In this document: one piece after another, positions 404-59,200 of the stretch
How positions within the stretch are numbered: position 1 is the first letter of the stretch
How the letters are laid out: each line of letters begins with the position of its first letter
Assembly: GCA_034638255.1 (NCBI GenBank)
Contig: JAWPGT010000061.1
Location: forward strand, 62,001-126,000
Reading direction: 5' to 3'
DNA from: Coprinus comatus
Taxonomy: Eukaryota; Basidiomycota; Agaricomycetes; Agaricales; Agaricaceae
DNA length: 64,000 bases
Position numbers and translations under genes: made by a program
Notes under the pieces: generated by a model
Databases searched by the model: none
Seen by the model: the letters and a program-made list of their open reading frames with translations, nothing else
Told to the model about the DNA's origin: nothing

Positions 404-3180
404 CCAGACCCTATTTATTCTCCTGAACCAGACATTCTGCCACCAGTGAACATCTCTGTTATCCCTCTCATTCTGTCCCGCAATGAGAAATCTATTTATT
501 TACCAATTTATCTTCAAAATCATTGCTCTCACCAGATCGCCACCCTCAATGCCCTGATTGATTCAGGAGCTCAAGGAAACTTTGTTTCTGAGAAAACCAC
601 ATGCTCCCTTAACCTCCAATGAACCCTGGTGGAACCTCCAATTGCCATTACAAATGTTGATGGAACCGAAAACATCAGTGGAACAATCACTGAGAAAGTA
701 GTTGTGGAATATATCATAGATGGTCAAAACATCAAGACAGATGCCTATGTTATTGGAATTGGAAAACACCCCACCATTCTAGGGTTTTCCTTTCTGGAAC
801 AGTACAATCCCAACATTGATTGGACTGCCAAAACATTCCGATGGCATTCACCATCTTCTAGAACCATCTCCTGCTCCCAACTCGAAAATTCCATCACAAT
901 CAATGAAATCACCTGTTACAGTGAAAACCCAATTGATGTTCCTAAAAACCTCCGCATTGCTGCACAATCACTCCCTGATACCCTTGACACTGGATTGGCT
1001 GGCCACCTCATACAAATCAATGCCAAAACTTCTGCATCCCAACTTATATCTCAAAAGCATGCAAAAGCTACATCTTCTGATCCAAAGGAGATAGTTCCTA
1101 GAACATTATGGAAATATCTTCCTGTCTTCAATAAGAAGGCTTCAGAATGATTTCCTCCATCACGACCTTGTGATCATTGCATTGATCTAAAAGAAACCTT
1201 CACTCCAAAGTCTTACAAACCATATCGCCTTGCACCAGCTGAAATGGATGAATTGAAGACCTTTCTTGATGAGAACCTAGCCAAAGGATATATTTGACCA
1301 TCTAAATCTCCCATGGCATCACTGTTCTTTTTTGTCAACAAGAAAGATGGAAAATCTCTCAGACCATGTCAAGATTATTGCTACCTCAATTCCCACACTG
1401 TGAAAAACACCTATCCCATTCCCAATGTCAGCTCAATCATGGACCACCTCTGTGGAGCTAAATACTTCACCAAAATGGACATTTGTCTTGGATATAACAA
1501 TGTTTGCATCTTTGATGGAGACCAATGGAAAGGAGCATTCAAAACTCCATTTGGTCTTTTCGAACCCACTGTTATGTTCTTTGGAATGACAAATTCTCCT
1601 GCAACGTTCCAGGCAATGATGGATCATATCTTCCGAGATCTCATTGACAAACCTGGTTGTACCACAGTTATTGTCTATATGGATGATATTCTCATTTTCT
1701 CTGATAACAAACAAGATCTTAACAAGATGACTCTAGAAGTTCTAAAAAGAGTCCAAGAAAACAATCTTTATCTTAAAACTGAGAAATGCAAATTGGAGAA
1801 AACCTCCATAGAATTCCTAGGAATGACAATAAGCCAGAACAGTATCACCATGTCTGAAGACAAACTGGCTGGAATTGCAGAATGGCCTATCCCAACATCA
1901 CAACATGAAGTTAGAAAGTTCTTAGGATTTGCAAACTTCTACTGAAAATTCATCAAGGACTATGCCAATATCACCCATCCTCTAAATGACCTTCTACACA
2001 AGTCAGTAGCATTTAAATGGACCCCAGAAGCAGAAGAAGCTTTCAATACTGTTAAAGACATGTTTGCGAACGGATCTATCCTTCTCACTCCTGATCCTCA
2101 CAAACCTTTCCATGTCGAAACAGATGCTTCTGACTTTGCAACAGGCAGTGTTCTATGTCAAACTGATGAAAACAGAGTTACTCATCCTTGTGCATTCCAT
2201 TCTAAATCCCTTGGACCTGCGGAACGCAACTATCCCACTCCGGACAAAGAACTCCTTGTGATCAAACAAGCTTTTGATGACTGGCGCCACTACCTACTAG
2301 GATTGCCGCATATAGTAACTGTGCACAGTGATCACAGCAATCTCCATTTTTGGCAAGATTCGCAGAAGCTGTCACATCATCAAGCTCACACTTGGGCTGA
2401 ACTGCAGAAATACAACTTTGTGATAAAACACAAACCAGGAAAAGAAATCCCTGCTGCAGATGCACTCTCTAGACAACCAGATCATAACTTTGACTCTGCT
2501 GAAGAAAATGTGGACATTGTGGTTTTACCAAACAAGCTATTCTTAAATGCCACTTCAACTGAACCTGCCTTAATTGCTCAAGAACCCACTCTGAAAGAGA
2601 AACAATGGCTTCTAGCACAGCACCATGATCACCATTCCGCAGGCCACCCTGGAATAGATGAAACATTAAGACAAATTCAGTTAATAGTGAAATGGCCTGG
2701 AATGTGCAATTTCATCACCAACTATGTCAAAGTTTGTCCAAAATGCCAACAATTCAAGATTGATTGGAATCCTGCAAAACCTCCATTCCAACCACTTCCC
2801 CCATCTGAATCTATGCATGTTTTTGGTGATATTGCTATGGACCTGATCACCGATCTTCCTATTTGCGGAAAATTTGATTCTATATTATCCATGATAGATC
2901 GCGGATTATTGAAGGGGATAATACTCTGTCCAATGTCAAAAACCTGCACCTTCACCAACATCTCTAAACTCCTGATCGACAATGTCTACAAATGGTTTGG
3001 TACCCCCAACACTATTGTCTCAGATCGCAACCCTTGTTTTGCTTCTAAAGCTGCCCAAAGGTTCTTTAAGATGCTCCAGATCAACTGGAAACCTTCTACG
3101 GCATACCATCCCCAAACAGATGGTGCAACAGAACAAGCTAATCAAGAGATTGAAACATATCTCTTGATCTACTTGGAGTC
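404..3180 (+). pseudogene. pol: Ty3/gypsy pol, part 1: protease, RT, RNase H, integrase (decayed)
   Basis: One reading frame runs from 404 to about 3180, broken only by TGA codons at 620, 1148, 1295 and 1943. In order it shows a retropepsin (LIDSGAQGNF near 555-585), a reverse transcriptase (MASLFFFVNKKDGK, KMDICLGYNN, active-site YMDDIL near 1678), an RNase H (VETDASDFATG near 2115, DALSRQ near 2458), an integrase zinc finger (HxxxH then CPKCQ) and part of the integrase core (GDIAMDLI; TVSD-like IVSDRN; YHPQTDG near 3106). This is the chromovirus order of Ty3/gypsy elements. No gag is visible upstream because a foreign LTR abuts at 402. The frame is cut at about 3180 by a 1.4 kb insertion. 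It is non-functional because of the stops and the insertion. Confidence 0.93.
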
Positions 3181-3319
3181 ACCAAAAGTGATGTCACGTC
3201 ACAGATTTTCCCACAGACAATCATTGATGCATTGCTCTCCTGCAACTTCGGGAGATAGACAATGAAGTTGAATACATATGGAGTATATTCTACTACAAGA
3301 TTACCTATAGAATATAATA

Positions 3320-10334: not shown

Positions 10335-13300
10335 CTACAACTTAGTTAACGCAAATATACGAGTATTAATATAATGATTAAAAAAAAACTTCTCTCCCAC
10401 ATCAAGAGCATTGAATGGAGTCCACTGATGATTGGGGTCACAACCGTGGATAATGGGAATGAGGTGGCAGGCATCCACCACATAAGAAAGTGGAAGGATG
10501 GCCGCTTGTTGTTGTCCTGATCTTGACCTTTCCGGTTTGATAACATAGAAGTTGGTGTTCGTGTCAATAGATCTGAAGGGAGTGTACCATTCAAGGTACA
10601 CTAAAGGGTGAGGCAGATTCCCAAATTGTGGTGGCAAGTCAAAGATGACTCGAATACGAGCTGCACGAAGACCTGAAACCAATAAATAATTAAATATTAG
10701 CAACATTATTCATACTCGTAGTTGAAACTTGCAATTTGGATGACGCACCATCAAGCCCACTACCCATGATGTATTTCTCTCTATCATCAATCACCAACAC
10801 TGTATCAAAGACAGCAGGTACAGCCTCCTTCTGATCTTGACTTTGCTTGAAAGGTCGTGTTTGTATACGTTGACATTGATGAAGAGAGCTGGTATGGTAT
10901 CTTGAAGGATATATCACAACATCTGCCTGTTTGTAAAGGCAGAAGAGATCATGAATGTTGGGAGTTATGATGGACTTGAGTGAGGTTTCCTGTAAGTAAC
11001 ATTGTAAACAACTTGCTTTGCTACCTCAAGTTCATCTGCTTGGTCTTCGGTATTCAAGACAATGTCCTCTGATTCTGGCTTCAACAGTAAGCTATCCAAC
11101 CACTGTATATAGGACTCACGTAGCCAGATGGACTCCTGCCATTTCAACCAGACTGTCATCTGTATGATGTAGTCTTGTTTGTTACTTGCAGAGTAGGCAG
11201 CCTTGGCAAAGTCAATGTGGAGTCGCTCAGGGGACTCTGTGTTGTAGCCATCGGCACTTCCTAAGGCACGGATTGCGTCCTCATAGTGGGATAGCGCATG
11301 GAGTTTGGGAAGCCGGAAGTGTTTACGAGCATTTGTTTGAATAAAAATTTCCTTGTGTTGATGGAAAGACACAAGAGCATCGCGCATGCGTATGAGACTC
11401 TGATGTGTATGACTCATGAGAGATGCATAGTAAACGAAGTCCAACACTGCACGTGCCGCCTTCACTACACTTGCATTCACACCACTCACTGGCAACAGTC
11501 CCACAAACACCCTCTCCATCTCTTTGTGCTCAGTTCCAGTCCATTGGGACACAAAGGATATTCCGTTGTGAAAATTGTGCAATTTTGGAAAGTCAGTAAT
11601 AAACTGGAACCGTCTATCCATCTTTGCCTCTCCCACTATTTGCTGACACCATCCCACTAGATGATCCTTGAATACTCCTTTATGGAGTTGATGTAATAGG
11701 TCTGGTGTGAAGCATGAAAACATATCACAATGTGGGAGGTTCTCCCAAAAAGGTGCATATACGGGCCATAGACCAAGTTCCTTGAATCTTGGTGGGTTTC
11801 TCCCTATCTCATGTTGTTTCAATAGTCTTAATGTCTCATCCACCTTCCTAGCCTCATCTGTATACCCCTCCCCTCGATCCTCTGCTGATATAACACACCG
11901 CAGGCATCTCAACTCTTTGCAACATGCCACTAGACACTGTTCTGGAAAATCGGCAACATACGAGCAAAGTATTGGGAAGATGTCCTAAACCCAGCCATCA
12001 GCACATACCATGGGGACACCCAACTTGCCAGCTTCAATCAACGGCTCCAATAACCTCTTCATACATGAGTGGAAGAACCTATACTTTTGAAATGATCTGG
12101 TTTTTGTATCAAAACAGTTGAATTTTGGTACAGGTAAGTACCCAATAAGAATTGTTGCTCTTTCTGAATGTCGATGTCTAACTTCTTTGGAGATATTGCC
12201 CACAGTAAGGTAGACTGGCCACGCCTCCTTGTCTCCTTGAAACAGGGAGAGCCGGGTCTTGTCTGATGCCAAGATCAGTGGAGCTATCGTCACTCCTTCT
12301 GGGAGTGTTTCCTTTGACCGAGTGAGTGATTTATTCACTGAGAGATGTTAAATAACAACTGACCTGTATCTTCCACCACCAATCTGCAGTCCACATTTCA
12401 TCGTAAATTTGGTGTTCTTCTTGCCTGGTGTTATGACCACGAACCGTTAAGCTGAACACCCTGGAACTTAAACGCTAGGTGCAGTCGTTTAGGAATGTGC
12501 TTTCAATAAACACTCTGCTGCAATCTCAAGGCCTTTCAACCTAGTGACCGAGAGGTATGGAGACAGAGATGTATAAGGGATACAACAGAAGAGATTAAAG
12601 CTTGAGGCTTTAATCGTCTAATACATCGAGTATTTATACTATTCTAGGGATGTACCTAATAATAGCTACTAACTAATTATATCCTAATACTCGTCATCGC
12701 TTTATAATCTACTCCATACACAATGATAGAACTGTCAACAGGAGTAGGTGAGACATCGGGGTCGGGGACTATTTACTCCATACACAATGAAAGATTAGTC
12801 AACAGGAGTAAATGACGAAATGGATAACTAATACTTGGAGTTGGGGAAATGCAGACTTCTAAATATAAACGGAAACTTATACTTAGTTCGACGTTAGGTC
12901 ATAGTGGCGAGTTGTAGGTCATCGTGGTGTCACGTATGTCATAGTGGGGCATGGAGTCTTCTGTTAGGCGATGTCATCCATGACGGAGTCGTCTTGAGGA
13001 ATGAGTTCGGGGAAGATGGAGAACAGATCTTCTTCCGTGGTAGTGGTGCGGACCGGTGGTTTGGGTTGGCTCGTAACACCTGGTAGCATCCATATACACT
13101 CTTTCAGGTGCGTAAGCCATGCTATCTTTTATCATTGGATTACCCATTAACATCCTTATACATTCTATAGGATCCCTTGACCATAGCTCCAGGTTTTCGG
13201 TCATCAATTCCCCAGTTGGCCCTTGTTTATCACCTTCAACTGTTAACATGTTGCAGGTCCATGCTGGTCCTTGTGGTAAGCTATCAATTTTCTTTAACAG

Positions 13301-16479: not shown

Positions 16480-16849
16480 GAAACTACCTATTCGAGTCAT
16501 AAGAGATTGGGAGAAACATAAAGGAGGGCAAGGAATAATAAGGAAACTATTAGTCCATTCTACTACATGCCTAAGTTGCTGCGGGTAGTTGGCTATTTCT
16601 ATGTGCACAGGTTTGGGTCTGTGTATCTATATATATAGTCCAGTATAAGTCATTGGTTCTATACATACTTTGTAGAACTATAAATAGTTCTTCTAGAGGG
16701 CGGTGGCATTGTCTTCTGCAGAGCAATATTCTAGTCCAGAGTCTGAGTCATCAGACTCATCGTGGGACCAGGTCGGTAGGAGTACCAGAATAGTTTTGAT
16801 CCACTCGTCATCGGAGTCGGATGCTTCTGATCTGGGTGGGTTCATAACA

Positions 16850-17320
16850 GGTGGAGGAAATCTTATGATCTGGGGTTGTATGTTGTTGGAAGGGGTTGGA
16901 TATGCTACTAGAATTGAAGGCAAGATGGATGCTGATCTATATGTTCAAATTTTGGAGGATGAACTGCAGCAAAGCATTGAGTATTATGGCAAGAATGTGG
17001 AGGATATAGTGTTTCAACAAGACAATGACCCCAAACACAAGAGCAAAAAGGCAACAAAATGGCTTGAAGAGTCTGGATTAGAGATCATGGTATGGCCCCC
17101 ACAATCACCAGATCTTAATCCCATAGAACATCTTTGGAATCATCTCAAAATAAAGCTAGGAGAGTATGATTCTCCTCCTAATAGTATATATACTCTATGG
17201 GAAAGAGTACAAAAAGAATGGAATGACATAAAGCCAGAAGTATGTCAGAATTTGATAGAGAGTATGCCTAGAAGGGTTCAGGCAGTTTTACAGGCTAAGG
17301 GAGCCTGTACCAAGTATTAG
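16850..17320 (+). pseudogene. Tc1/mariner transposase, 3' part
   Basis: Coding resumes after the second GGTGG copy with GNLMIWGCM. The second catalytic aspartate lies in FQQDNDPKH near 17020, and the glutamate in PQSPDLNPIEHLWNH near 17120. With the Asp of QQD, the spacing is D34E, the usual Tc1 signature. The protein ends after RRVQAVLQAKG with a TAG at 17318-17320. It is joined in frame to the piece ending at 9694 once the LTR and one duplication copy are removed. Confidence 0.92.
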
Positions 17321-33385: not shown

Positions 33386-36300
33386 ATGTCTGCCCCTCGG
33401 CCATCTCTTGCGGCGGAGGCTGCTAGGCAGCCCACTCAAGTCTGGGTACCCGATTTTAAGGAGGGCTATCTACCAGGATGGGTCCACAGCGAAGACGAGG
33501 AGGCAGCAGAAGTAGTGATGGAGAGCGGCGAGGTATGTGCACTCGGCTATATCGTCCTTGATTTACTTCTGAGGTGTCTATAGATCAGAAGAGTCCCATT
33601 TGATTCATTATTCAAGATGAATCCCCCAAAGTTTGACCGGGTCGACGATATTGCTGACTTAACCTTTCTCAACGAAGCAAGTGTCGTCCATAACCTTCGG
33701 CTAAGGTATTACTCAGGTGCTATATACGTGAGTGATCTCTCTAGGCTGCCCTTGACTATAAGCCACTAACCCAGTATACCTTTTGCAGACATACTCAGGC
33801 TTGTTCCTTGTTGCTATCAATCCATATCAGAATCTTCCACTATATACCGATGCGATAATTCAACTTTACCGAAATACGCGGAGAGATGATAACCCCCCTC
33901 ATATATTTGCAGTTGCTGAGCGAGCTTGGGTCAATATGGGTGGTATTGCGGGAGCAAATATTGATTGGTATTTGCTAGAGAAGAGTCGAGTTGTCGTGAG
34001 GAGTGAAGCAGAGAGGAATTTCCATGTCTTTTATCAATTACTTGCCGGTGATGAGGATCTCAGAGGTAAGTCTTTCAACTGCCTACTAACACGCGTCTGA
34101 CTGGCACCAAGAACAACTGTTGTTGGGTGGAGATGTATCGGATTATGAATATGTGAACAAGAGTAGACGTGAAATTGACGGTGTTGATGATAGAGAGGAG
34201 TGGAATGCTCTTAGGGTGAGTGTTCCCAACCTTGCTTTTTCAGCAATGCGTAAATGACTCTGTTCAGGCCGCCCTTGATGTAGTTGGGTTCACGCCAACT
34301 CAACAGTTTGATCTATTTCGAGTTGTTGCTGCAATATTGCATATCGGCAACATCGTTATTACTTCATCACGAGCAGACGACGCTATGATGCCCGATCCTT
34401 CTCAAGCAGAGCGCGTTTGTCACCTTTTGGGCCTTCCCGTTGCAGAATTCACACGGGCGTTACTACGACCACGAGCACTGGCTGGACGGGAATGGGTTAC
34501 ACAAGCACGAACTCGTCAGCAAGCTTTGGATGAACTCGCTGCCCTCTGCAAGACTTTATACGAGAAGTCCTTTGGTGCCCTTGTTGACCAGATTAACCTT
34601 GCTTTGGATCGCCCTTCTTCGAAATCTACATTTATTGGTGTGCTTGATATTGCTGGTTTTGAGATCTTTGAGGTCAATGGATACGAGCAGCTTCTCATCA
34701 ACTATACCAACGAGAAATTGCAACAATTCTTCAATCATCACATGTTCATTTTAGAACAAGAAGAATATGCCCGCGAACACATCAAATGGGACTACGTCAA
34801 CTTCGGATTAGACCTACAACCAACCATCGACCTCATTGAATCTAGTGGCAATGTCATCGGTATTCTCAGCTGCTTGGACGAAGAGTGTATTATGCCCAAA
34901 GCAACTGATCTCACATTCACCAACAAGTTACACATGATGTGGGCAAGTAATGATGAAGAAAACGAAGAGCGGCATCAGGGCAAGGATAAATATGAGCCGA
35001 CACGATTTGAACAGGGTTTCATTATTCAGCATTATGCGGCAAAGGTCGACTACCGGACGGATGGATGGTTAGAAAAGAACAAAGACCCTCTGAATGACAA
35101 CCTTACTCGCGTTCTTGCTGCATCCTCGGAGAGGTATATTGCATCACTGTTTGCCGAATACAATGACGGTCCTGTGCCAGGAGGTGCTAACAATATCTTC
35201 AATGGTGGCAAGAAGCGTGCTCTGAAGAAGGGTGCATTCAGAACTGTCGCCCAACGCCATAAAGAACAACTATCAAGTTTAATGTCTCAGCTACGGTCAA
35301 CACAACCCCATTTCGTTCGATGTATTGTCCCAAACAACATGAAAAAACCCAATCGCATTGATGTTCCAATTGTACTCGACCAACTACGTTGCAATGGTGT
35401 TCTAGAAGGCATCCGAATTGCACGTTTAGGTTATCCCAATCGACTTCCGTTCGTGGAATTCCGCCAACGTTACGAAATATTAACGCCCGATGTTATACCT
35501 CGTGGATATATGGATGGACGTGAAGCATCTCGTAGGATGATTAGTGTTCTTGAATTGGACGAGAGCATATACAAGATTGGTACTTCCAAGATTTTCTTCA
35601 AGGCAGGTGTATTGGCCGAACTTGAAGAACGTAGGGATAGTCTGTTGTATGACTTATTCACTCGCTTTAAAGCCGTCGGATTGAGTTGGTCTCGTAGAAG
35701 GAAGTATTTGATGATTATGAATCGTGCTGTGGCTGCTAAGATGATACAAAGGAATGTACTGGTGTATAAGGATCTACGTCCTTGGCCTTGGTGGAAACTT
35801 TATACTTCAATTCGACCTTTACTTGCTGCTACTAGGAGTGATGATGAGCTGGAAAGGAAGGAAGCAGAATTGGCGGAGATTAGAGAGAAAGCTGAACGGG
35901 ATCAACAAGCGCGTGAAGCTTTGGAAAGCTTAAAGATGACGTTGGAGTCTGAGAAGAAGAAAGTGGAGGAGGAATTAGAGGCGGAAAGAGCTTTGGCTAT
36001 TGATAAGGACGACCTTTTAGAAAGAAGTAAGAAGAGGGAAAGTGAACTGGAGGAGGAAGTCAACGCGTTGCAGAGTGATCTTGATTTGTTGGACTCGCAA
36101 CTTGATAGAGCAATGAGATTACAAAAGGAGAGCGAAGATAAATATTTGTCATTGAAAGACGCCTTTGAGCAAGCTGCCGAACATCTTGTTCGTATGGAAA
36201 CGGAGCAGAAGGAGTGGGTTCAAAGAGAAGCAGAATTGGTAGAGGAATTGAATGGAGCAAAGGAAGAGTGTGATACGCTACTCCAAAATCAGGAGGAACT

Positions 36301-39300
36301 TCGGAAGGTGGGCGAAGAGTTGAAGAATATTGCTATTCAACAAGAGGAAGATCTAAATCGCACAAAAGAAAGGTTAGAATCAAATAGTAAAGAACTTGAA
36401 GGGAAACTGGAAGCCGAGCAGAAAGCCAAGTAAGTATCTCGTCTGTAAACTTTGGTTGCCGTTGGCCTAATCAATGGCTCAGGGATACATTGAAAGCGAA
36501 AGCCACCAGCCTGGAAGACGAAGTTCGTATTGCCAAAGAGCAACTTGCAGAAGTGACGCGGTCCGCCACGGATTATGCTGATATGATCACCAAGAAGGAA
36601 GATCAGATCAAGCAGCTCTCGCAAGAGTTTAATCAAATCCGAGTTGAAGGTGCCAAGAGACAACAAGAAATAGCTGGACTTCGTAGTCAAAAGGCGACTA
36701 TTGAAGCTCAGCTTCAGTCGGAAAAGGATGATCATGCACAAGAGCAAAACACCCGAATTGGTTTACAGAAAGAGCTCGATGATCTACGTTCTCTCTTGGC
36801 CGCAAAAACGAGTGAAGAAACGCGTCGCAGTGAAGTTGAGAAGAGTAGGGAGGCTGAGTTGGGTTCTTTACGCACCCAAGTTGACGAGTTGAAGCAAGAA
36901 CTTGCTGAAGTACGGCGAAAAGCGGTGGAGGTACAACAGAAGCTGGAGCTGGAGAAGACAAACGCTCAACGAGACCATCGTACCCTCGAATCCAGTTATA
37001 ATTCCCTACTCAAGCGCGAGGGTGATGCCTCGTCACAACTCTCTAAAACAAAGGCAGATCTTGCTGAAGTTGAGAAGTCAAAGCGAACGATAGAGTCTGA
37101 ATTGCAGGTTCTGAGAACAAGGCAGATTGAGATGGACACTCAGCTTGGCGACGCGCTCAAACAAGTAGAGGTGAATACAGATTCCTGTTCTTCGATGAAA
37201 GTCGTCTAACTTATTGTTGTAGGGACTGGAGCGCCAGCGTAACGTTGCTCAAGCCCGTTACAAAGATTTCGAGGATGTTGTTTTGGAACATCAGCGTGAA
37301 AAAGAGAATCAACTCCGACAACTAGACACAGTCCGAAAACAACTTGAAGCTGAATCAACGAAACGTGCCGAATTGGAAAAGGCCTATACAACTCAGAGGT
37401 CAGAGTTGAAGCAGCTTAAGGATCGTAGTATTAAGATGGAAAGAGAACTTAATAAAGCTCTCAAGGACATCAAAGATCGTGAATGGGACATTAAGCAGCT
37501 AGAGTCCAAGCAAGACAAGACTATCGTTGAACATGTTCACGTCTTGGAGGAAGCTAAACGAGTCACCGATCGACAATTGGCGGAGGCTCAACTGGAGCTG
37601 CAGAAGAATCACGCATATATCCGGTCATTAGAAAAGACAAAGGGGCGGTTGATGTTAGAGGCAGAAGATTTAGCCAGGGAGACGGAGAAAGAACGCCTGG
37701 AACTACGGAGCAAGGAGAAGAATATTAAATTACAGGAGGAAAGAGCAACCAAGGCCCTTGCAGATGTTGACAAGGAACGGTTAGCAAAGGAAGCCGCCGT
37801 CTTGGAGGTTCAACGTTTGAAATCTCAACTAGAGAGTACTCGTAATCAGGCTGCAGAAATCGTGGAACAACTCGCATTTGTTCAACGTGCCAAGGATAAC
37901 CTGGAGAATGAATTAGAACGGCTTGCTAATGAGAGTGGTGGATCTGAATCTTTGTCAAAGGTCCAAAGGCAATATGAGACTCGGATATCTCAGCTTGAAG
38001 AACAATTGGAGGAAGCAGAGATGGCTAAAGTAACTTCAAATAAAATCAGGGAAAATATCGAACGTCAGCATGCGGAGATCCGTCGTCTTATCATGCATAG
38101 TGGACCACGAGATAGTGACTTCCAGAATAGACTACTTCAAAAACTTCAATCGGTGGACAACATGCTCGACCGCGAGATGTCACGGAAAGGACCAAGAAGG
38201 AGCGGTGCGAATGAGCTGCAAACTCTTGCAAACCTCACTCCAACGAAGAACAAAACCTCTCCTCCTTCCGTACCACACATTGATCGCGAGGCGCAACGGG
38301 CTCGTGAGGATAGTGATAGGCAGGTTGCTGCACTCAAGCAACATGTACAAGTTTTGGAACTTCAAATGGCTGCTTCAGAACGAGTCCGCCATCACCTTGA
38401 AATTTCCCTCAAAGAATTGTCCTCTGAACTTGAGAATAGCGATGGTTCCAAACAGTTCTTGCAGCAATATCGTGCAAGGCTGACAAAGGAAAATGCAAGA
38501 CTTGCGGAATTGCTTAAAGATGAAGCAGATGCTCGTCGGGCTGCTGAAGCTGCACAAGCCGAGGGTATCCAAGTAATGTGGAACAAATTCCAAAAAACTA
38601 TTGCTAATGAGCGAGAGAGCTATTCCCGTCTTGAAGAGTCTCGTAAAGCCCTGGCAAGTCTTTATCTTTTCACAATGTCTGAAGTACTAATTCAACCTCC
38701 AGTTGATACAACAACGAACTGCACAAGGCGAGATTGAAGCTCAAAAGACACAACTTCGCGAGTTCACGGTTGTTAAGAAACAACTTCAACAAGAGGTTAC
38801 TGATCTCCGCGATCAACTCCAGGATGTCAGAAATGAAGCTGCAAGTGCGTTGTTTATTGTACGTGACAAGGGAATCCATATTCATCGATTTAACAGATGC
38901 TAAACGTCAATTGCAAAAGAAGCTTCAAGATGACGAGTTGAAAACAAGTACCTCCGCAGCCGCAGAGTCTGGTACGCTATTCTTAAATTCATTCGAATTA
39001 GTACTAAATAAATTACTGCAGAACTTAAGACGGTTATTGAATCATATCAGCAGAAAGAACAAGGATACTTGGAGCGCCTTGAGGCTACTGAAATTGCCAG
39101 GGCAACCGCTGCTCGTGGTGAAGCCTTTGCCCGACGTCAAGTTGAAACACTTGAAAAAGCGCTTGCAGACACCAAGGCTGAACACAAAGGAATCAAGGAT
39201 AAATATCACTCTTCTGAGAAGAAACTGCGAGCACTTGAATCAAAACTTGAAGATGAAGGACGTGAATCTTCTGACCTTGCTGTGATTCAAAAACGACTTG

Positions 39301-40661
39301 AAGAAGAACTAGAAGACGAACGAGAGCAACATCAAAAGGATCTTGCAGAACGTGACTTTACTATTGATCAGACAAGGAAGAAGTATCAATGTAGGTTTGC
39401 TTGACTTGTGTCGACGATCCCATTGGTTGACTATGAACTACGTTTAGCTGAACTTGCTCAACTAAGTGAGGAACTTCAATCACAGAGAGATGCCTTGAGT
39501 CGAGTTCGTGAAGAGAGTCGCAAGATTCGATCTGACTTTGATGAACTTCAGCTACGTTATGATGATGAAGTTTATAATAGTGGAGGTTGGAAGAAGGAGA
39601 AGGAGCGTATGGACACGAAGATCAAGGACCTTACCAAAGCCTTCGAATCATCAACCCAAGCACAGACTGAACAACAAACTCAGATTGTTGCATTACATCA
39701 ACAAGTTCGAGAATTACGAGGAGTGTTGGATGATGCAGAATCTGAAAGAGCAATGTTGCAAAAGGCTAGACGGGCCTTGCAAGCCGAATTGGAGACTATC
39801 AAATTGGATCATGTGGACACCAATAAGACAATGACGGAAACTGAGTACCAGAGGCTACAGTTGGAGAAGCAAGATTTGGAGAGAAGTTTGGAAGAACAAG
39901 GAGATCGTGTGCAACAGGCATTGAATAAGATGATGAAAACAGAAGCTTATGCGACAGAATGTTTAGAAGCGCTTGAGAAAGTTAGGACGGAGAATGTAGA
40001 GCTTGATCGTCAAAATGTAAGTGATGGGAGTAATATTATACTGACATTCGTCACTCATGTTTACATCTTAGGCTCACTTGGAGAAGCAAGTCAAAGAGCT
40101 CAACGTCCGTATTGTTGACCTCGAGACGAAGTCTTATGCAAATTCACCAAGACCTGCAACTGTTTCGAGACGGACAGATAGTCGTATAGAAGAATTAACG
40201 AGCCAATTGAGTCAAAGCAATCGTGATAAGAGTACATTGGGTCGCTCAGCAGAAAAATTAGCAAGAGATGCGAAATTTCAACAATCTGAATTAGACAGGC
40301 AGAGGTTGAAGTTTGAGGAAGAAAGAAAGACATATGAGACCCGGATTAAGGATTTGAGGGGTGCGCTTGATACCGTGGTATGTAGTAATTTCTTTCATCT
40401 TCGTTCTTATTACTTGAATAACGCGTACGCATTTTACAGCAAACAAAAGAACATGAATTACAGGCCTCAAATCGCCGGGTAACTCGTGAAGCCGTTGACT
40501 ACAAACAACGCGCACTCAAGTGAGCGTACCTATTAATTATTAAATAATCATACTAAATACTGAGGAATAGTCTTGAAATGGAACTTGAACGGCTACATAA
40601 CCGATTAGGTAGACCTGCATCTTCTGTGATTGGATCTCCTGCAAGTTCACCTCGGAAATGA
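33386..40661 (+). CDS. MYO2-like: Class II myosin heavy chain lacking P-loop and switch I
   Basis: The gene encodes a conventional myosin II of about 2100 residues that should drive the cytokinetic ring. The head has [28 protein letters not shown] near 33785, [12 protein letters not shown] near 33893, switch II LDIAGFE near 34645, the actin-binding stretch [10 protein letters not shown] near 35310, and a converter region with [16 protein letters not shown] near 35535. An IQ-like segment and a very long coiled coil (35830-40600) follow, ending in a Ser/Pro tail ([10 protein letters not shown]). Between AERAW-VNM and [15 protein letters not shown] (33915-33960) the usual stretch of roughly 80-110 residues is missing. 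That stretch holds GESGAGKT and the NNNSSRFGK switch I. The reading frame is kept and no splice sites explain the gap. Without both elements ATP hydrolysis is not expected. Either the allele is altered or the assembly collapsed locally. Confidence 0.92.
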
Positions 40662-56228: not shown

Positions 56229-59200
56229 ATGAGCGCAAACGACCTCTTTTCTTTTCTGGATGCACCAGCAGACGACAATGATGACGTAATATTGGAAGAC
56301 GCTCAAACAGAAGAAACTGATTCCCCGAATCTGAAGAGAAAAGCGGAGTCTCTGCAACCAGAACAGAAAAATGGTGACATGGTTGTAGACGAGGAACCAG
56401 AGGATAATTCTCCCCCCAAAAAGCCACGGTTAGGATCACCAAAACCTGTGGTACTGGATGACTTTGAAACGGAGGCGAAACGGGAAGTCGCTGCAAGTGC
56501 TGGGCTGACTGGGGCTACAACAGAAGCGGGATCACGTCTGGAGCTAAAACACCAGGTACGCATGTATAGTTCTTATTCTAAAACTTATTTTTGACTTTGC
56601 TTTAGGTTCGACATCAAGTGGCCGTACCACCGGGCTACAACTATATTCCTATTTCACAACACATCCCACCTGCTAAACCCGATCGAGAATACAAGTTCGA
56701 GCTGGATCCTTTCCAAAGGGTGTCGGTATATGCCATTCAACGAAATGAGAGTGTCCTGGTATCTGCACATACTAGTGCCGGAAAGACTGTTGTAGCCGAG
56801 TATGCTATTGCTCAATGTCTTAATAGAAAACAGAGAGTCATTTATACAAGTCCTATCAAGGTTCTTATTCCTCTTAAGTGCATGTTGTGAAATTTTGTTC
56901 ACATTGAACATTGTAGGCGCTAAGCAATCAAAAATACCGAGAAATGCTTGCAGAATTCGGAGATGTTGGTCTAATGACGGGGGATGTGACGATAAACCCT
57001 TCAGCAACTTGTCTGGTAATGACGACAGAAGTAAGTTCAACTGAGAAAGATGTATGTATTTAATACTGATGATTTTGGACTACAGATTTTACGTTCAATG
57101 CTTTATCGTGGTTCTGAAATCATGCGTGAAGTGGCGTGGGTGATATTCGATGAAATTCATTACATGCGAGATAAGGAACGTGGCGTAGTCTGGGAAGAGA
57201 CTATTATTCTACTACCTCACACTGTTCGCTATGTTTTCCTTTCGGCAACGATACCCAACGCAATGCAGTTTGCTGAATGGATTTGTAAATCACACGACCA
57301 ACCTTGCCATGTAGTTTATACCGATTTCCGACCTACTCCTCTACAACATTACTTGTTTCCTGCTGGTGGAGAGGGTATCTTCTTGGTTGTCAATGAAAAG
57401 GGCGAGTTCCGAGAAGATAACTTCAGCAAGGCGATGGGAAAATTACAAGACAGTATGGGCGATGATCCTGCAGACTCGAAAGCAGGAAAAGGGAAGAAGG
57501 GGAAAATAAAGAAGGGTGGTGACAAAAAAGGTGTGCACATCCCGGTTTTACCATATGCGGTGTAACCAACATGTTATTAGGATCTTCGGATATCTCGAAA
57601 ATTATCAAAATGATTATGTTGAAAAACTACAATCCTGTCATTGTTTTCGCATTCAGCAAACGAGAATGCGAGAGTTTAGCAATGAATCTATCAAAATTCG
57701 AATTCAATTCTTCTGACGAACAAGACCTTGTTTCAAACATCTTTACTAATGCCATTGTGAACTTGGCCGAGGCCGACCGTGAACTTCCTCAGATTGCAAA
57801 CCTTCTACCACTTCTCCGTCGCGGAATCGGCGTGCATCATGGTGGTCTCCTTCCTATTCTCAAGGAGGTCATCGAAATTCTTTTCCAAGAGGGTCTTATC
57901 AAAGTACTCTTTGCCACAGAGACATTTTCCATCGGTTTGAATATGCCTGCTAAAACTGTTGTATTCACAGCGGCAAGGAAGTTTGATGGTCGCGAGTTCA
58001 GGAATTTGTCTTCTGGAGAATATATTCAGATGTCTGGTCGTGCTGGTCGTCGTGGTCTAGATGATCGTGGTGTTGTCATTATGATGTGCGATGAGAAGCT
58101 GGAACCTACAGCCGCTAAAGCTATGGTTAAGGGTGAAGCTGACAGACTGGATTCTGCTTTCCATCTCGGGTATAACATGATTCTCAACTTGATGAAAGTT
58201 GAAGGTATTAATCCGGAATTCATGTTGGAACGGTGTTTCTTCCAGTTCCAAAGCAGTGCAGGTGTTCCTAAACTTGAAAATGGTATGCGTATTAGACCTC
58301 GTCCTTGCCAATAAGTGACTCACTTTGTTTTTCAGAGCTTAAAGAGGAGGAAGAGGCCAAGAACTCGACGGTTATTCCTGATGAAGAACGCGTCGCAGAG
58401 TATTACGAGTTCCGCCAACAACTCGATCAGATGTCGTCTGACTTCCGAGAAGTAATAACCCATCCTACCTATTCATTACCATTCCTTCTCCCTGGACGAC
58501 TCGTGAAAATCAAATATCAAAAATTGGATTTCGGATGGGGAGTTGTCATCAATTATCAAAAACGCTTACCACCAAAGGTAAGATCAGTTCTTCAATTCAT
58601 ACAGATACACACTTAAATTTATACAGAATCGACCTATACCTGTGGACCTACCGATTCATGAGCAATATGTCGTCGATGTCCTCCTCAATTGCGCTAAAGG
58701 CAGCGTCGCATCACAGGATCATTCAAACGTTCAACACCAACCAGCGGGTATTACTCCTTGTCCTCCGGGGCAAAGTGGCCAAGCTCTGATTGTTCCAGTC
58801 CTACTTTCTACACTCGATGGCATCAGTCACTTGCGCTTGGTAGTACCCAAAGATCTACGACAAGAATCTGCAAAAGAACATCTTTGGAAGAGTGTTTTGG
58901 AAGTACAAAGTCGTTTCCCTAGTGGCATTGCCCTTCTTGATCCTATACAACACATGGGTATCAAAGATGACAAGTTCAAGGAGCTAGTAAAGGTAAATCG
59001 GATTTACTTGTTTCATGTTATCTCCGCTTAAACAATGTCAATATTCATCCAGAAAATGGCCATCATGGAAAACAAAATGTTTTCTAGTCCCCTTCACAAC
59101 GATACTAGGTTACCCGAACTTTACACAGCATATGCAACGAAGAAAGAGCGCCAGGATAAAATCCGAGATTTGAAGAAAAGAATTCAATCTACTCATGATG

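What the first reader, a model, noticed from the sequence alone, without database searches (positions are those of the whole stretch)
33783..34100. Class II myosin motor without P-loop and switch I
Seen directly: the coding sequence passes from [15 protein letters not shown] straight to [17 protein letters not shown]. In other class II myosins these blocks are separated by roughly 80-110 residues carrying GESGAGKT (P-loop), the helix after it and NNNSSRFGK (switch I). Switch II (DIAGFE), the actin-binding region, the converter and a full coiled-coil tail are intact, and the frame is preserved. No GT-AG pair at the junction could splice in a missing exon. If real, this is a filament-forming, actin-binding myosin that cannot hydrolyse ATP in the normal way, possibly a structural ring component or a dominant regulator. 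A local assembly collapse is the main alternative.
Basis: partly seen in the sequence, partly recalled or inferred. Interest (0 to 1): 0.88.

Follow-up and report, generated by a model that had tools for sequence, protein, structure and literature searches.

The report
Mushroom myosin II missing its ATP site
The only class II myosin gene found in this mushroom genome assembly has a clean in-frame gap that removes the ATP-binding part of the motor; the relatives that could be compared keep that part, so this is most likely either a recent deletion in this isolate or a local assembly error, not an established new kind of motor.

Summary
The window encodes a 14-exon, 2,194-residue class II myosin heavy chain (33386-40661, no internal stop) whose exon 3 jumps from AERAWVNM to [13 protein letters not shown]. 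About 132 residues are absent compared with close relatives P0002 and P0242, among them P-loop and switch I. The flanking introns have no room for them, and the segment was not found elsewhere in the 35.7 Mb assembly. The other four myosin-head genes found carry TH1, DIL or chitin synthase domains, so this is the only class II gene found. Of 356 listed homologues, 178 could be measured; all have at least 92 residues where the window has 11. The rest of the motor evolves at an ordinary, constrained rate. Among 38 gene clusters of five families in this assembly, only this one shows such a hole. The simplest reading is one recent in-frame deletion, giving a motor-dead chain with an intact tail. 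A local assembly error is nearly as likely and cannot be excluded without reads. A long-established ATP-independent myosin is unlikely. Motor-independent myosin II function is already known from yeasts.

The parts
33386..40661 (+). class II myosin heavy chain gene, 14 exons, 2,194 aa, 13 introns of 46-62 nt (12 GT-AG, one GC-AG at 38654-38702)
   Evidence: hand-built gene model, one open frame, single stop at the end; best-scoring hits are mushroom myosin heavy chains
33789..34065 (+). exon 3, 92 aa, carries the deletion junction
   Evidence: Pfam Myosin_head in two stretches
33936..33947 (+). deletion junction: ATG GGT GGT ATT; the second GGT (33942-33944) stands where relatives mostly have Ser (PDGSIA) and can be read as one fused codon, G|GT
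   Evidence: codon table; what relatives carry on each side
34268..36429 (+). exon 5: rest of motor (switch II, relay, SH1/SH2, converter), neck and start of coiled-coil tail
   Evidence: Pfam Myosin_head 243-679 of 679
34646..34663 (+). switch II DIAGFE, retained
   Evidence: residue 351; position counted by me from the exon table
36483..40661 (+). exons 6-14: remainder of the coiled-coil tail and C-terminus, intact frame
   Evidence: tail 80% identical to Leucocoprinus leucothites P0002, aligned to its last residue

Best explanation
A single, evolutionarily recent in-frame deletion of roughly 400 coding bases has hit the only class II myosin gene found in this mushroom isolate (nearest hits: Leucocoprinus, Leucoagaricus, Macrolepiota). 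[quoted passage not shown] Inferred: the head cannot bind or hydrolyse ATP in the normal way and probably does not fold into a stable motor. The chain would still dimerise and assemble through its tail, so any remaining role in cytokinesis or septum building would be tail-driven, as with headless Myo1 in budding yeast. The allele would be a loss-of-motor lesion of one strain or one nucleus, not an adaptation.
For: One clean breakpoint explains the odd junction codon: relatives mostly carry Met-Gly-(Glu/Asp) on the left and Pro-Asp-Gly-Ser-Ile on the right, and G from the Glu/Asp codon plus GT from a Ser codon AGT gives the observed GGT (inference, as no relative's DNA was at hand). Close relatives P0002, P0003 and P0242 have both motifs, so the loss came after their split. 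The motor/tail branch-length ratio is ordinary (0.48, 9th of 41, median 0.40), and the intact sister P0002 has a longer motor branch (0.087 against 0.066). There is no stop or frameshift in 2,194 codons and no N in the window. Among 38 gene clusters of five families this is the only hole with no room in the DNA. The gene's 5' 3 kb is not repeated in the assembly, apart from one 106-nt match at 74% in the class I gene. Class II loss is survivable in a filamentous fungus: A. nidulans myoB deletants are viable, though sick (PMC3281053, passages).
Against: No reads, no second assembly and no same-species sequence were available, so the DNA itself is unverified. The A. nidulans myoB deletants grow so poorly that permanent stocks could not be kept (PMC3281053, passages), so such an allele in an isolate would be unexpected unless the tail suffices or another nucleus complements. 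A chance join stays in frame one time in three. The window departs at 3 of 88 highly conserved columns near the junction, a count reached by only 1 of 102 relatives, and its motor branch is above the median (0.066 against 0.044, 7th longest of 41). That slight excess would fit a somewhat older loss.
Confidence: 0.5

Rival explanations
1. Local assembly or gap-closing error: the organism has an intact myosin II and the assembler or a gap closer joined two ends with a few bases in common.
For: All 178 measurable listed relatives have at least 92 residues here. Motor constraint looks intact. The gene is expected to be important, since A. nidulans myoB deletion nearly abolishes septation (PMC3281053, passages). 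No second copy of the locus was found in the assembly, so a single wrong join would go unnoticed.
Against: The two sides of the junction can share only a few bases (inference), and the flanks are not repeated elsewhere. There is no N in the window and no frame error in the gene. The missing segment was not found on any other contig, although the same search found parts of the corresponding segment in the other four myosin genes at 34-49% identity. None of the other 37 gene clusters has such a hole between neighbouring matches.
Confidence: 0.4
2. A long-established motor-dead class II myosin that works as an actin-binding or filament-forming scaffold in this species.
For: The frame is preserved, the tail and the retained motor parts are conserved, and no other class II gene was found. 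Motor-independent function is documented for headless Myo1, myo2-E1-Sup1 and Myp2 (PMC7710916, passages). The myosin-17 chitin synthase CsmA tolerates point mutations in P-loop or switch I (PMC4425547, passages). The slight excess of departures near the junction would fit.
Against: No measurable listed relative shares it. Motor rate is that of working motors, whereas an old loss should have freed the pocket-lining residues. The deletion cuts through the middle of the motor's core, so a folded actin-binding head is doubtful (inference).
Confidence: 0.07
3. The missing part is supplied by splicing from a cassette exon, or the gene is one of two allelic or paralogous class II genes.
For: None found. 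In 5 of 6 genomic fragments of relatives that I printed the exon appears to end right before the P-loop, so introns do occur nearby.
Against: Introns 2 and 3 are 61 and 46 nt. No other class II motor segment and no second copy of the locus were found in the assembly.
Confidence: 0.03

Closest known systems
Fungal class II myosin heavy chains (e.g. Leucocoprinus leucothites P0002, Macrolepiota fuliginosa P0242)
   Same: same gene; 87% identical in the motor and 80% in the tail to P0002, same downstream motifs
   Different: these relatives keep the 132 residues with GESGAGKT and NNNSSRFG
Headless Myo1 of budding yeast and motor-deficient Myo2/Myp2 of fission yeast (laboratory alleles)
   Same: myosin II function carried by the tail and/or actin binding without motor activity (PMC7710916, passages)
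   Different: those are engineered deletions or point mutants; here an internal cut leaves most of a head
Myosin-18A (enzymatically inactive, joins NM2 filaments)
   Same: filament partner without enzyme activity (PMC11335295, passages)
   Different: it works beside an active myosin II; none was found here. How much of its ATP site it keeps was not checked
[quoted passage not shown]
   Same: natural loss of ATP-site function is on record (PMC5583752, passages)
   Different: the passages seen name no fungal class II example and no deletion of the whole segment

Membership tests
class II myosin heavy chain | N-terminal myosin head whose best-scoring relatives are class II | tested here: met
   best-scoring hits include many named myosin II, class II myosin or nonmuscle myosin heavy chain; others are named hypothetical or P-loop NTPase, or have no name
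class II myosin heavy chain | long coiled-coil tail, no DIL, TH1 or chitin synthase domain at the locus | tested here: met
   tail aligns with P0002 to its end; the DIL, TH1 and chitin synthase hits all lie on other contigs
class II myosin heavy chain | P-loop GESGAGKT | tested here: not met
   absent; present in 119 of 120 hits (the exception P0116 has GESGA and then jumps, probably a gene-model error)
class II myosin heavy chain | switch I NxNSSRFGK | tested here: not met
   absent; present in 119 of 120 hits (the exception P0112 has a disturbed stretch just before NNSSRFGK)
class II myosin heavy chain | switch II DIAGFE, relay, SH1/SH2, converter | tested here: met
functional (ATP-driven) myosin motor | ATP binding and hydrolysis | not testable with these tools
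   inferred lost from the missing P-loop and switch I
repeat-collapse assembly artefact | a repeat shared by both ends of the missing part, or flanks repeated elsewhere | tested here: not met
   flanks not repeated elsewhere; no direct repeat of 8 nt or more spans the junction; the two sides can share only a few bases (inference)
assembly artefact in general | reads contain the missing sequence | not testable with these tools
   no reads available

The most novel reading that the evidence does not exclude
A wild mushroom lives with a natural, fixed, motor-dead myosin II as its only class II myosin, and builds septa with a tail-driven, ATP-independent ring.
Probability: 0.07. Interest if true: 0.8.

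Novelty: new variant of a known kind. Interest (0 to 1): 0.35.

Why it matters
If the deletion is real, this is a natural counterpart of laboratory headless or motor-dead myosin II alleles, in an organism where no other class II gene was found. It could show whether a multicellular fungus can make septa without myosin II motor activity. If it is an assembly error, it is a warning that a clean, in-frame error can look like biology.

Tried and rejected
Second class II myosin or missing exon elsewhere: not found. At first sight the class V gene (C18) also seemed to lack a P-loop; reading the printed bases showed it split by an intron inside GES|GAGKT. A blastp test for relatives spanning the junction gave 193 'span' calls among 240; those I looked at were false, because the window's stretch before the junction was aligned to the relative's stretch just before IAGAN. 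It was replaced by an anchor-distance test (170 of 240 measurable, shortest 92, with a slightly narrower pattern and 116 more proteins: 178 of 356, shortest 92). A first gene-model script started at the wrong base and was redone; one script failed on a missing space and was rerun.

AlphaFold2 of the intact relative P0242 had mean pLDDT 55.7, below 50 over nearly all of the segment in question, and is not used for any claim.

Literature: six searches in the held PMC library listed, by title and start of abstract, no paper on a class II fungal myosin without a P-loop; the listed Mucor myosin-II paper (PMC9800795) was not opened. Same-species sequences: none recognised among the listed hits (best 86% over a long alignment, P0274; 90% over a short one, P0122), so no independent copy of the junction could be compared.

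Full report
What is there. A gene model built by hand from the window has 14 exons (33386-40661, + strand), 13 introns of 46-62 nt (12 GT-AG, one GC-AG), 2,194 residues and a single stop at the end. The best-scoring database hits are mushroom proteins, many of them named myosin II or nonmuscle myosin heavy chain. The best full-length one is P0002 of Leucocoprinus leucothites: 87% identical in the motor, 80% in the tail.

The hole. Exon 3 runs [25 protein letters not shown] without a break. The Myosin_head profile jumps from position 79 to 164 with no base in between. P0002 and P0242 have 132 residues here and P0003 has 91 (its gene model probably leaves out part of loop 1). By alignment of P0242 to human myosin-9 the absent part corresponds to roughly residues 163-247 (my count). 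By the order of elements given in PMC5583752 (passages) it should hold the strand before the P-loop, the P-loop, two helices with loop 1 between them, switch I and the strand after it. Switch II, relay, SH1/SH2 and converter remain.

No rescue in the genome. Introns 2 and 3 are 61 and 46 nt. In the 35.7 Mb, 134-contig assembly five myosin-head genes were found (it scores only its best candidates). C1 has a TH1 domain beside the head (class I), C18 a DIL domain (class V), C36 and C101 chitin synthase domains. C61, the window, is the only class II gene found. A query with a relative's missing segment found parts of it in the other four genes at 34-49% identity, and at the window's gene only the two flanks. 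A DNA search with the first 3,044 bases of the gene found itself and one 106-nt match at 74% in the class I gene.

Relatives. Three searches listed 356 different proteins: the best 120 each of 7,992, 690 and 7,502 hits, four of them listed twice. Of the 356, 178 carry both flanking anchors (114 of 120, 40 of 120 and 24 of 116). Their spacing is 92 residues or more, against 11 in the window. The other 178 are fragments or lack an anchor and say nothing. Two of the 120 lack one motif (P0112, P0116); the stretches next to it are present, which points to gene-model errors (inference).

Age. In trees of the window and 40 relatives (the first 40 of those over 2,150 residues) P0002 is the window's sister. 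The window's motor branch is 0.066 (7th longest of 41, median 0.044) and its tail branch 0.138 (14th, median 0.107). The ratio 0.48 is 9th of 41 (median 0.40); close to the junction it is 0.47 (11th of 41, median 0.35). The intact P0002 has a longer motor branch (0.087). At 88 columns near the junction conserved in at least 97% of relatives the window departs at 3, as many as the worst of 102 relatives (P0003, intact). At 241 columns further along the motor it departs at 3; 17 of 114 relatives have 3 or more. That test used 117 of 120 relatives (P0009, P0112 and P0116 left out) and, for each set of columns, skipped rows with many gaps. One of the three near departures (E131D) is shared by P0002 and P0003. 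So the motor looks constrained until recently, with at most a slight excess near the junction.

Junction. Relatives mostly read Met-Gly-(Glu/Asp) on the left (122 GEEREN, 35 GDEREN) and Pro-Asp-Gly-Ser-Ile on the right (131 PDGSIA). The window reads ATG GGT GGT ATT. One cut after the first base of the Glu/Asp codon, joined to the last two bases of an AGT serine codon, gives this exactly; this is inference, since no relative DNA was available. A repeat collapse would leave one copy of the repeat at the junction; the bases left of it fit only the left-hand protein and those right of it only the right-hand protein, so the shared stretch can be only a few bases. The two 8-nt direct repeats in the 500 bp around lie wholly to the left of the junction; one 8-nt inverted pair (33903-33910, 33954-33961) flanks it, which is about what chance gives (my estimate).

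Is the assembly full of holes? For five families (myosin head, chitin synthase 2, TCP-1, kinesin, actin) I grouped matches into 38 gene clusters with 76 neighbouring pairs; the C36 and C101 genes count twice, once for each domain. Only the window's myosin has a profile gap of 25 or more positions without DNA for at least 80% of it. Thirteen other gaps have room, the tightest an actin-family gene with 41 positions over 118 nt. Holes inside a single match would not be seen (from; one below-cut-off row left out).

Reading. The data fit a recent real deletion or a rare local assembly error about equally. I lean slightly to a deletion because there is no repeat, no N and no frame error, the join is one clean break, and no orphaned piece was found. 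Against it stands the cost expected from another filamentous fungus: A. nidulans myoB deletants are viable but nearly without septa, and stocks could not be kept; in P. marneffei the defect is milder (PMC3281053, passages). If real, the chain is best seen as a motor-dead heavy chain whose tail may keep part of the function, as for headless Myo1, which directs a ring and largely completes cytokinesis, or motor-deficient Myo2 and Myp2 (PMC7710916, passages). A dominant regulator is unlikely because no other class II myosin was found.

Noticed in passing
window 38654-38702: Non-canonical GC-AG intron (GCAAGT...CTCCAG) in the myosin II tail; the only one of 13.
   Followed up: partly
G000:C18:74880-75140 (L008): In the class V myosin gene an intron sits inside the P-loop itself (GES|GAGKT), so simple motif scans miss it.
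   Followed up: yes
L006/L012 (G000:C101) and L005/L011 (G000:C36): The two myosin-chitin synthase genes carry altered P-loops, GITGSGKS and GESGSGKS.
   Followed up: no
window 1313-3265: Reverse transcriptase, RNase H and integrase domains of a retroelement in neighbouring open frames.
   Followed up: no
window 10965-11930 and 16703-17320: A piece of a Plavaka transposase (- strand) and a DDE_3 endonuclease domain, probably of another transposon (+ strand).
   Followed up: no
window 57571-58314: Helicase C-terminal domain followed by the start of an MTR4-like stalk, probably part of an exosome helicase gene.
   Followed up: no
P0134, P0137, P0160, P0170, P0153: In 5 of 6 genomic fragments of relatives that I printed the myosin II exon appears to end right before the P-loop (NQSILIT|), a few bases from where the class V gene of this genome has its P-loop intron; the sixth, P0147, reads through.
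   Followed up: no
G000:C1:1514412-1514576: A DIL domain with no myosin head match near it.
   Followed up: no
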